DNA from: Sulfuriferula multivorans
Lineage (GTDB): Bacteria; Pseudomonadota; Gammaproteobacteria; Burkholderiales; Sulfuriferulaceae
Length of the DNA: 45,890 nucleotides
Assembly: GCF_003851125.1 (NCBI RefSeq)
Contig: NZ_BGOW01000045.1
Location: forward strand, 1-45,890
Direction of reading: 5' to 3'
The notes beneath the pieces are model-generated. The model was not told where the DNA came from. It did not search any database and saw only the letters and a list, made by a program, of their open reading frames with translations. Numbering within the stretch: position 1 is the stretch's first letter; every line of letters starts with the position of its first letter. Below are positions 34,603 through 37,101 of the stretch, piece by piece. The position numbers were made by a program, and so were the translations under genes.

Positions 34603-35898
34603 TTACCGTTTGTCCACCGCAATATAATCGCGCCGCACTTCCCCCACATACAGCTGACGTGGCCGGCCAATCTTGTTTTCCGGGTCGCCGATCATTTCGT
34701 TCCACTGCGCCACCCATCCCGCGGTGCGGGCCATCGCGAAGATGGCGGTAAACATGTTTACAGGAATGCCCAACGCACGCAACACAATGCCGGAATAGAA
34801 ATCCACATTGGGATAGAGTTTCTTGGCGATGAAGTATTCATCCTCCAACGCGACCTGTTCCAGCTTGCGCGCAATCTTGAACAGCGGGTCGTCGTTCAGC
34901 CCCAGCTCATCCAGCACTTCATGGCAGGTTTCGCGCATCACTGCGGCACGCGGGTCCATGTTTTTGTATACCCTGTGGCCGAAGCCCATCAGGCGGAACG
35001 AATTGCTCTTGTCCTTGGCACGCTCAATGAAAGCACCGATGCGCGAAACATCACCGATTTCCTCCAGCATTTTCAAAACTGCCTCGTTGGCACCACCATG
35101 TGCTGGGCCCCACAGCGATGCGATGCCTGCCGAAATGCAGGCGAAGGGATTGGCACCCGAGGAACCTGCCAGGCGCACCGTGGAAGTGGAGGCATTCTGC
35201 TCATGGTCTGCATGCAGGATCATGATGCGTTCCAGCGCGCGCGTCAGTACCGGGTTGGCAACATAAGGCTCGCATGGCGTGGCAAACATCATGTGCATGA
35301 AGTTTTCCACATAACCCAGGCGGTTCTGCGGATACATAAAGGGCTGGCCGGTGTTGTATTTGTAGCTTCCTGCCGCAATCGTGGGTACTTTTGCCAGCAG
35401 GCGGAAAGCGGACACTTCGCGGTGGCGCGGGTCATTTATATCCAGCGAGTCATGATAAAACGCCGACAGCGCGCCCACCACACCTACCATCACGGCCATC
35501 GGGTGCGCATCACGTCGGAAGCCTCGAAATACCATGTTGATCTGGTCATGCAGCATGCTGTGCTGACGCATGGTGGCGTCGAAGTGCTGCTTCTGCTCGG
35601 CTGTGGGCAATTCACCATATTGCAGCAGATATGCCACTTCGATGAAATCGGAATGCTGCGCCAGCTGCTCGATGGGGTAGCCACGGTAATAGAGCAGGCC
35701 CTTGTCGCCATCTATGAATGTGATGCTGGAGCTGCAACTCGCTGTGGCCTGGAAACCCGGGTCATAGGTGAAATAACCCGATTTTCCCAGGCTGCGAATA
35801 TCGATCACGCTGGGACCGAGATTGCCGGACAGCACGGGCAATTCGATGGGCTTGGCGCCGTTGTCAAAAGTGAGGGTGGCTTTAGTCGGTGGTTTCAT
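34603..35898 (-). CDS. gltA: Citrate synthase (in frame with sdhE upstream)
   Basis: GltA condenses acetyl-CoA with oxaloacetate. From [20 protein letters not shown] the protein is 431 residues, the normal type II (NADH-sensitive, hexameric) length. The catalytic residues are visible in [12 protein letters not shown] (His), [13 protein letters not shown] (His) and [15 protein letters not shown] (Asp). An AGGAAAG ribosome site precedes the ATG at 35898, so independent initiation is likely. However, the frame is open upstream through sdhE to a TTG at 36129, which would give a 508-residue SdhE-GltA fusion. The join lies in an A6 run; with five As sdhE would stop at a TGA overlapping this ATG. 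sucA follows after 6 nt. Confidence 0.95.
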
Positions 35899-36129
35899 TT
35901 TTTGCTTTCCTGTACGCAGCCATTCAATAATTATTGCCTGTTCGGGCTGAACCACAGACTGGTTTGTCTGGATCATATCCCACAGCTCGTTATCGCCCAG
36001 TTCCAGCAAGTCGCCGAATGCGATTTGCTGGCTGGATGGGAGATCGGGGTAATGCCGCTCCAGAAAATCCTGTAGCAGGATGTCCAGTTCGAGCATCCCG
36101 CGCCGGGCACGCCAGCGCAGACGGTTCAA
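35899..36129 (-). CDS. sdhE: SdhE FAD assembly factor, 5' end replaced by a MITE and fused in frame to gltA
   Basis: SdhE helps attach FAD covalently to SdhA. The 77 codons read [20 protein letters not shown] and on to [13 protein letters not shown], with the RGMLELD motif, the hallmark RGxxE, intact. Only a TTG (36127-36129) is available as start, with no proper ribosome site. A MITE-like element ends one base upstream. Excising it and one TAA copy gives ATG ATT AAA TTG AAC CGT, that is M-I-K-L-N-R, overlapping the sdhB stop as ATGA. The 3' end has no stop codon before gltA. The gene is therefore probably poorly expressed or untranslated, unless the TTG or the internal ATG of RRGM is used. 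Confidence 0.75.
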
Positions 36130-36133
36130 TTTA

Positions 36134-36398
36134 GGGCTCGTTCATGAATAAATGAACTTACGCTGGGGTCGCTTTGGGATGCAGCCCAAGGCGCGAGACG
36201 AGCGGTTGTGTCATTCACAACAAGCGGCTCGCAACGCCGGGATGCGCCCAAAGCGGCCCCAGCCCGAAGGGTTGCCGTGTATTCGGGATGGATGCTAGGC
36301 GCGAAGCGCGGCGAATGGTTGTTCCATTCGCAAGCTTTGCAACGCCGCAGACGCCCGAATACACGACAACGTAAGTCCATTTATTCATGAACGAGCCC
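36134..36398. mobile_element. 265-bp MITE-like element with two internal hairpins
   Basis: Terminal inverted repeats of 29 bp with one mismatch (outer end GGGCTCGTTCATGAATAAAT) begin at 36134 and 36398. They are flanked by direct repeats TTA at 36131-36133 and 36399-36401. Inside are two long stem-loops: 36163-36262 (CTGGGG...CCCCAG, apex GTTGTG/CACAAC) and 36276-36365 (CGTGTATTCGGG...CCCGAATACACG, apex GCGAATGG/CCATTCGC). There is no transposase. A 3-bp TNA duplication and GGG ends fit mobilisation by an IS5-family transposase (ISL2/IS1031-like), which is inference. Translation entering from the former sdhE ATG at 36406 now yields a 63-residue nonsense peptide ending at 36215. Confidence 0.85.
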
Positions 36399-36402
36399 TT
36401 AA

Positions 36403-37101
36403 TCATGCACCGCGCTTTACCAGCAATGTTTTCATTTTACCAATTGCTGCGGTGGGATTCAGCCCTTTTGGGCAAACTGTCACACAATTCATAATGCCGT
36501 GGCAGCGAAACAGCCGATAGGGATCTTGCAGATTGTCCAGGCGCCGATCAGAAGTCTGGTCGCGGCTATCCGCAATGAAACGATAGGCTGCCAGCAGTCC
36601 GGCCGGGCCGACGAACTTGTCCGGGTTCCACCAGAACGACGGGCAGGCGGAAGAGCAGCAACCGCACTGGATGCACTCCACCAGTCCGTCCATCTGCGCA
36701 CGCTGCTCCGGGCTTTGCAGGCGTTCGATCTCGGGTGCGGGGTCGGCATTATTCAGCCAGGGCTCAACCGAACGATACTGTTGATTGAGCGGTGTCATGT
36801 CCACCACCAGATCGCGGATCACCGGCAGACCCGGCAACGGGCGCACCTCCACCGGCTGCTTCAGGTCTGCCAGCGGAGTAATGCAGGCCAGCCCGTTGCT
36901 GCCGTTGATGTTCATACCATCCGAACCGCATACCCCTTCGCGACAGGAGCGGCGCAAGGTGAGTGTGCTGTCGAGGGTATCCTTGATCATCAGCAGCGCA
37001 TCCAGCAGCATGTTGCCGGCCGGATCGATGTCCAGATCGTAGACCTGCATATGCGGCTTGGCATCCTGCTCAGGGTCGTAACGGTAAATGGAGAAACGCA
37101 T
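36403..37101 (-). CDS. sdhB: Succinate dehydrogenase iron-sulfur subunit
   Basis: SdhB passes electrons from the flavin of SdhA to the membrane quinone site through three Fe-S centres. The 232-residue protein has the [2Fe-2S] ligands in SCREGVCGSDGMNINGSNG followed by LAC (about 57-78) and the ferredoxin-like domain with CIQCGCCSSACPSFWW (about 143-158) and CHGIMNCVTVCPKGLNP (about 200-216) for the [3Fe-4S] and [4Fe-4S] clusters. The gene overlaps sdhA by one base. Its TGA stop once overlapped the sdhE ATG (ATGA); the MITE terminus now lies 5 bp beyond the stop. Confidence 0.96.
   Translation of the reverse strand: MRFSIYRYDPEQDAKPHMQVYDLDIDPAGNMLLDALLMIKDTLDSTLTLRRSCREGVCGSDGMNINGSNGLACITPLADLKQPVEVRPLPGLPVIRDLVVDMTPLNQQYRSVEPWLNNADPAPEIERLQSPEQRAQMDGLVECIQCGCCSSACPSFWWNPDKFVGPAGLLAAYRFIADSRDQTSDRRLDNLQDPYRLFRCHGIMNCVTVCPKGLNPTAAIGKMKTLLVKRGA

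What the first reader, a model, noticed from the sequence alone, without database searches (positions are those of the whole stretch)
36127..36410. MITE inserted into codon 3 of sdhE; excision in silico restores an exact ATGA-coupled start
Directly visible: a 265-bp element with 29-bp terminal inverted repeats and TTA duplications lies between sdhB and sdhE. Removing the element plus one TTA joins the sdhB end to sdhE. The result is ATG ATT AAA TTG AAC CGT, which encodes M-I-K-L-N-R and runs in frame into SdhE, and whose ATG overlaps the sdhB TGA. The present sdhE has only a TTG and no ribosome site, while the old ATG now leads into a 63-codon nonsense frame. The two strong hairpins also sit mid-operon, upstream of gltA-sucA-sucB. 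Inference: SdhE synthesis, and perhaps the stoichiometry of downstream TCA enzymes, is altered.
Basis: partly seen in the sequence, partly recalled or inferred. Interest (0 to 1): 0.78.

Follow-up and report, generated by a model that had tools for sequence, protein, structure and literature searches.

The report
Twin-hairpin mobile element splitting sdhE
A 265-base non-coding jumping DNA element has landed in the first codons of a gene that helps build a respiratory enzyme, and it appears to belong to a widespread family that keeps the same two-hairpin middle while its ends differ from lineage to lineage.

Summary
Window 36134-36398 is a 265-bp element with 29-bp inverted ends (28/29 matching) and TTA duplications in codon 3 of sdhE. 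G002, the relative with the most similar SdhB, has an uninterrupted ATGA-coupled junction aligning codon for codon with the predicted empty site. Of 12 genus genomes with SdhE only this one has a 280-bp gap. Sixty-one elements with these ends were delimited; 38 are 263-268 bp, and 24 of those have exact TTA/TAA duplications. The remaining TTG start has a weak ribosome site; loss of SdhE is not shown. The larger result is the element. A model of one hairpin hits 95 of 369 class genomes. The twin-hairpin core recurs, mostly in elements near 270 bp, between inverted ends that on average are no more alike than shuffled sequence, even within one genome. Four of seven insertion-sequence ends tested match an element end. 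This suggests a class-wide non-autonomous element that keeps its core and changes its ends. Seven library searches found no earlier description.

The parts
36134..36398 (.). 265-bp twin-hairpin MITE (end type TTA|GGGCTCGTTNATGAATAA)
36131..36133 (.). target-site duplication TTA, one side
   Evidence: exact TTA or TAA in 31 of 61 elements
36399..36401 (.). target-site duplication TTA, other side
36134..36162 (+). terminal inverted repeat, left (28 of 29 paired with right)
36370..36398 (-). terminal inverted repeat, right
36162..36263 (-). hairpin A; core found by model R1 at 36174-36250 (-), 32.7 bits
   Evidence: (arms 36162-36178 / 36247-36263)
36271..36370 (-). hairpin B; core found by R1 at 36283-36357 (-), 103.3 bits (this copy is in the model's training set); cap inverted relative to the other 37 full-length copies
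   Evidence: (arms 36271-36287 / 36354-36370)
36264..36270 (.). linker between hairpins, part of CCCGAAGGG (family CCCNNNGGG)
36403..37101 (-). sdhB, 232 aa, intact; stop overlaps the old sdhE ATG
35899..36129 (-). sdhE body (PF03937, E 2.1e-19), now starting at TTG and open into gltA
34603..35898 (-). gltA, citrate synthase, own ATG at 35898
36215..36406 (-). 63-codon frame opened from the old sdhE ATG (no Pfam match)
36126..36380 (-). 84-codon frame across the element; its TGA overlaps the sdhE TTG as TTGA (no Pfam match)

Best explanation
The 265 bp is a non-autonomous transposable element, moved in trans by an unidentified transposase (IS5-superfamily-like by its TWA target) that inserted it in codon 3 of sdhE. 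It belongs to a class-wide superfamily defined by its middle: two homologous hairpins, normally of opposite polarity, joined by CCCNNNGGG and flanked by inverted ends of about 30 bp that differ between lineages and in some cases match insertion sequences. In this operon the insertion separates sdhE from its ATGA-coupled start. SdhE should now be made at reduced level from a weakly served TTG, possibly by re-initiation after the 84-codon frame that ends on it. The sdh-gltA-suc transcript probably continues through the element, with its long stem a likely RNase III site. Shown: insertion, empty site in relatives, multi-copy family, conserved core with different ends, structural covariation. Inferred: the transposase, the fall in SdhE, RNase III cleavage, how ends are exchanged, and why the core is kept.
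For: Empty ATGA-coupled site in G002, and sdhB-sdhE gaps of 12-42 bp in ten and 110 bp in one of the other 11 genus genomes with SdhE. 61 delimited elements, 38 of 263-268 bp, exact TTA/TAA duplications in 31 of 61 (24 of the 38), unrelated flanks. Same core with three end types inside the genus. R1 hits 95 of 369 class genomes, own included, while 728,734 bases of window plus 80 named loci gave matches below E 0.001 only in the window, L112 and L139. In 26 of 26 loci with two hairpins within 200 bases, the left is '-' and the right '+' (my count from the table). Pair covariation: 404 cells changed on both sides against 118.6 shuffled and at most 72 when slid (the alignment was fitted to the model, which favours it). 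Among 25 end clusters, mean cap identity 0.69 (shuffled 0.56), mean end identity 0.43 (shuffled 0.42); 4 of 7 IS ends tested match an element end beyond all 200 shuffles. Weak start energy at TTG.
Against: No autonomous partner for this end type was found. 30 of 61 elements lack an exact TTA/TAA duplication. Three of 7 IS ends do not stand out from shuffles (68, 8 and 57 of 200), and three of the four that match do so with an element in another genome. End clusters were made at a 75% threshold, so low end identity is partly by construction, and 7 of 300 cluster pairs still reach 60% end identity against 0 shuffled, so some end types are related. 15 of 56 core-bearing loci gave no bounded element in the length window used. 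The window's own copy breaks the '-'/'+' rule because its hairpin B is flipped. E-values of R1 are rough and no unrelated phylum was searched. No expression data.
Confidence: 0.7

Rival explanations
1. An ordinary single-lineage MITE: internal deletion of one IS, with a palindromic middle kept by chance or by recent spread, and nothing special about its core.
For: Size, ends and duplications are typical of MITEs; many copies within the genus.
Against: Bounded elements with the same cap and unlike ends lie in 26 genomes of 19 families (family codes, elements), and G365, G429, G478 and G563 each hold more than one end type. None of 45 transposase-bearing loci, some cut by contig ends, carries the core inside an IS; the four R1 hits among them are two elements lying directly beside an IS.
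Confidence: 0.15
2. The core is a functional RNA (regulatory or processing element) used by the host, and mobility is secondary.
For: Very stable fold, strong covariation, and G-U without A-C at the inner pairs 25-137 and 26-136 of alignment A2.
Against: On 38 full copies wobble does not clearly favour one strand (G-T 68, A-C 101 cells on the A-to-B strand); flanks are unrelated; no Rfam match at E up to 5. The A2 bias is confounded because the model chose the strand.
Confidence: 0.12
3. The insertion is neutral for SdhE: the TTG start or re-initiation gives normal SdhE, or SdhE is dispensable here. This concerns only the sdhE part of the best explanation.
For: SdhE body intact, dN/dS 0.26 against G002; G013 has an SdhB-like protein (57% identical) but no SdhE hit.
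Against: 12 of 13 genus genomes with a strong SdhB hit also have SdhE (the SdhB of G015 is in two pieces). Start energy is the weakest of the 13 sites listed.
Confidence: 0.3
4. Assembly artefact: the repeat was wrongly joined into the sdh operon.
For: The host is an 87-contig draft and repeats are prone to misjoining.
Against: The element lies inside the contig with an exact TTA duplication, and both flanks align to one continuous locus in G002.
Confidence: 0.03

Closest known systems
Correia repeat / NEMIS (CREE) of Neisseria
   Same: Small non-autonomous palindromic element with inverted ends, beside and inside genes; transcript stem bound or cut by RNase III (PMC2649163, passages).
   Different: The passages give CREE sizes of 71-73 to 154-157 bp; a TA target is recalled. 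This element is 265 bp, has a TTA/TAA duplication, two homologous hairpins, and relatives with other ends.
CIR repeats of Caulobacter and Brucella
   Same: Two long inverted repeats forming two arms joined by a linker (PMC2229807, passages).
   Different: CIR is described there as differing from repeats with a stem between 5' and 3' ends; this element has a 29-bp end stem and target duplications.
MITEs with ends of known insertion sequences (IS5 superfamily)
   Same: TTA/TAA duplication; some end types of the superfamily match IS ends closely, e.g. those of L289 and L303.
   Different: No partner IS for the window's end type was found; the core is shared across end types. That these IS are IS5-like is recalled; the calls show PF01609, and PF13340 for L063.
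TIMEs (Tn3-derived miniature elements)
   Same: Non-autonomous elements that form mosaics (PMC4133298, passages).
   Different: Tn3-type ends (title); the passages seen describe no exchange of ends around one conserved core.
REPIN / BIME
   Same: Related palindromes in alternating or inverted orientation (starts of abstracts in listings).
   Different: REPs are 20-40 bp (PMC3733652, start of abstract); this element is bounded by long inverted ends with duplications. A RAYT link was not tested.

Membership tests
MITE (non-autonomous DDE element) | Inverted ends | tested here: met
   28 of 29 bp
MITE (non-autonomous DDE element) | Target-site duplication at independent sites | tested here: met
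   Exact TTA in this copy; TTA or TAA in 31 of 61 elements, 24 of 38 full-length ones
MITE (non-autonomous DDE element) | No transposase gene, under 500 bp, multi-copy | tested here: met
MITE (non-autonomous DDE element) | Empty site in a relative | tested here: met
   G002 junction
MITE (non-autonomous DDE element) | Ends match an autonomous element | tested here: inconclusive
   Not found for this end type; 4 of 7 IS ends match other end types of the superfamily
IS5 superfamily derivative | TWA or CTAG target duplication | tested here: met
   TTA/TAA; CTAG flanks in the second end type. That this marks IS5 groups is recalled
IS5 superfamily derivative | Cognate IS5-type transposase for these ends | tested here: inconclusive
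   None by end pattern with up to 2 mismatches in 18 genus genomes; only 12 of 42 PF01609 rows were read for their ends
Correia / NEMIS | Correia end and core sequence | not tested
   No Correia sequence was fetched; size difference is from passages
CIR repeats | No stem pairing the 5' and 3' ends | tested here: not met
   29-bp end stem present
Known Rfam structured RNA | Match to an Rfam 15 model | tested here: not met
   0 matches at E up to 5
SdhE (PF03937) | Sdh5 domain above gathering score | tested here: met
   69.7 bits, cut-off 27

The most novel reading that the evidence does not exclude
A class-wide superfamily of mobile DNA whose identity lies in a conserved, divergently arranged twin-hairpin core and not in its ends: the core is copied under the ends of many different insertion sequences, so one non-autonomous element parasitises a succession of unrelated transposases, and the core itself must give an advantage (for example pairing the two ends in a folded strand, or making insertions tolerable to the host).
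Probability: 0.5. Interest if true: 0.8.

Novelty: new variant of a known kind. Interest (0 to 1): 0.6.

Why it matters
MITEs are usually defined by their ends, as shrunken relatives of one insertion sequence. A core that outlives its ends turns this round and makes a testable question: what does the hairpin pair do that is worth keeping across many bacterial families? It also gives a model (R1) for annotating elements that I could not find described. The sdhE case is a natural experiment on breaking start-stop coupling of an assembly factor inside a central metabolic operon.

Tried and rejected
Autonomous partner: end patterns over 18 genus genomes gave 143 sites at up to 2 mismatches; two inward pairs lie 0.6-3 kb apart (G008:C31, G012:C12), both made of parts of separate elements. 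The same pattern at 1 mismatch over 300 order genomes was read by eye only, and its listing was cut. PF01609 and PF13340 transposases in the genus: 12 loci were fetched and read for ends, five of them re-examined by alignment; ends of some could not be found. Viral contigs: two contigs with the same single solo end, no partner in the stretch held.

Plasmids and phages: no credible element match (the five plasmid records have E 6).

Element as protein-coding: inward frames from the end ATG run 70 or more codons in 58 of 76 cases (38 copies, two directions), but there is no Pfam match, and the commonest frame on each strand is open through the whole element in only 7 of 38 copies. Not pursued as a gene.

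Strand-specific RNA: the wobble test gave no clear strand. The later bias in A2 (G-T 130, A-C 79) comes mostly from one dominant U-G pair and is confounded by strand choice.

Hotspot idea: a second superfamily element lies at the sdhE 3' end of JAFAKZ010000315.1, but with three elements in 729 kb searched, 80 of whose 81 sources were chosen for sdhE-gltA, this is not surprising.

One search, which allowed 70-480, gave 21 of 30 loci in that range as the top inverted repeat; of the other nine, three gave none and six other lengths (97, 97, 167, 196, 287, 325).

Orientation of hairpin A was ambiguous for 9 of 38 copies and scored '+' for 4; only the statement about hairpin B is used from that call.

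Full report
What was checked. As a single strand it folds into a stem formed by the two ends and two hairpin arms, far more stable than shuffled sequence (z = -14.9).

The empty site. In G002, the genome with the most similar SdhB (94%), sdhB ends in ATGA and sdhE follows directly as MTELNRLRW; the window, without the insert and one TTA, would read MIKLNRLRW with no gap in the alignment. Distances from the sdhB hit to the SdhE profile start are 12-42 bp in ten of the other genus genomes, 110 bp in G011 (no such element in the 120 bases printed upstream of sdhE there) and 280 bp here.

State of sdhE. The protein body is intact (PF03937), and 12 of 13 genus genomes with a strong SdhB hit have SdhE. 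Over its first 65 codons dN/dS against G002 is 0.26, the highest of six pairs (the others 0.15-0.21); the gene is short and this says little. The only upstream start is TTG at 36129 with a predicted 16S pairing of -2.2 kcal/mol; the other operon starts give -4.3 to -8.4 (with the limits told in the observation check). The TGA of an 84-codon frame that crosses the element overlaps this TTG, so re-initiation is possible. Separately, sdhE has no stop before gltA: one A is missing from the run before the gltA ATG compared with G002, giving a 508-codon open frame. G011 also has an in-frame junction; none of the 27 named loci, of 80 examined, in which my motif scan found both proteins does. gltA keeps its own ATG, with AGGAAAG upstream.

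The family in the genus and order. The element matches in 11 of 18 genus genomes, own included; its 18-bp end, with up to 1 mismatch, in 16 of 300 order genomes, in eight genera (three of the 16 are genus members). Of 61 elements delimited by both ends in the loci then held (two of them overlapping), 38 are 263-268 bp; 31 of 61 and 24 of the 38 have an exact TTA or TAA duplication. Short forms of 46-53 bp made of little but the two ends also exist. Among the 38 full copies, stem pairs show many compensatory changes, and the balance of G-T (68) and A-C (101) cells does not mark one strand clearly as an RNA. In the window copy the cap of hairpin B is inverted relative to the other 37; arms may be able to flip on their own stems.

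The core outlives its ends. In the same genus, a second set of elements has the same caps and the same CCCNNNGGG linker but ends in CTAGGAGCCTGTCGGACTT, and a third (G003) ends in TTA-GAGCCGCTTTCAATAGG; the lower stems also differ in sequence while staying complementary. A covariance model of 33 hairpin-B cores (R1) was run over 369 class genomes: 95, own included, have a match at E up to 0.001, in 78 of 272 genera (E-values are rough and few candidates per genome were scored). As a background, 728,734 bases of window plus 80 named loci gave matches below E 0.001 only in the window, L112 and L139. In the 56 loci fetched by R1 hits, 86 hairpins were found, and in all 26 loci with two within 200 bases the left is '-' and the right '+' (counted from its table); the window copy, with its flipped cap, has both '-'. 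41 of the 56 lie in an element with inverted ends of score 14 or more, 30 of those 263-276 bp long within the allowed window; with a wide window, 21 of 30 loci gave that length. These 41 come from 26 genomes of 19 families. The 46 ends compared (these 41 plus five from earlier calls) fall into 25 clusters at 75% identity, at least three of which look like fragments or variants of another. Between clusters, mean end identity (0.43) equals shuffled (0.42), while cap identity is 0.69 against 0.56; 7 of 300 cluster pairs reach 60% end identity against none shuffled, so a few end types are related. G365, G429, G478 and G563 each hold more than one end type with the shared core.

Who moves them. Seven insertion-sequence ends found around transposase genes were compared with the 46 element ends; four match an element beyond all 200 shuffles: L289 (G365 IS, 17 of 18 with an element in G563), L303 (G429 IS, 15 of 16 with one in G478), L309 (G478 IS, 15 of 19 with one in the same genome) and L063 (an IS of the window's own genome, 17 of 22 with one in G478). 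Three do not stand out. None of 45 transposase-bearing loci holds the core inside an IS; the two with hits, L055 and L160, have an element abutting the IS. So the elements are not shown to be deletions of those IS; the simplest reading is that the core has acquired different ends. How it does so is unknown; template switching on palindromes is my guess.

What it does here. Committed reading: reduced SdhE through loss of start-stop coupling, with the rest of the operon still transcribed, and cleavage at the long stem by RNase III likely by analogy with Correia elements (PMC2649163, passages). These steps are inference. SdhE as a flavinylation factor rests on established knowledge and on starts of abstracts seen in a listing, where one paper (PMC8621075) disputes that role for Shewanella.

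Novelty. Seven library searches (and 72 on Correia elements) and passages of five papers (PMC10969869, PMC4853749, PMC2229807, PMC2649163, PMC4133298) showed no description of this core or of end exchange around it; most subscription papers, preprints and ISfinder were not available. The window element is a MITE by the features tested, except that a partner is not known. The core-conserved superfamily with exchanged ends appears to be a new variant of that kind.

Noticed in passing
34603-36129 (-): sdhE and gltA form one 508-codon open frame without a stop between them; one A fewer than G002 in the run before the gltA ATG. G011 also has an in-frame junction; 0 of 27 named loci (of 80 examined) with both motifs found do.
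   Followed up: partly
L038:1297 (+), L049:1319 (+), L051:1259 (minus-strand numbering): In 3 of 20 loci fetched, a solo copy of the element's end opens a long frame beginning MNN (218, 277 and 109 codons), because the end reads ATGAATAAC inward. Ends may be taken over as translation starts; whether these are the true starts was not tested.
   Followed up: partly
L139:470-737 (JAFAKZ010000315.1): An independent 268-bp superfamily element with its own end type (AGGGGCTGTTGATGATAG) sits at the 3' end of sdhE, before gltA, in another lineage.
   Followed up: partly
L160:1-685 (G000:C3) and L055:147-1602 (G002): Elements of the window's type directly abut the end of an insertion sequence in two genomes, at its CTAG or TTA target.
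   Followed up: partly
L043, L044, L045, L046, L047, L203, L204, L205: Tiny 46-53 bp palindromes consisting of the two ends and little else; four of these eight have exact TAA duplications, suggesting the ends alone can be mobilised.
   Followed up: no
36271-36370: The cap of hairpin B is inverted in the window copy, 1 of 38 full copies.
   Followed up: partly
G004, G008, G009, G010, G012: These genus genomes have no strong SdhB hit (G009 only a weak one) and no SdhE hit; G008 and G012 have the most matches to the element (31 and 30) in the genus.
   Followed up: no
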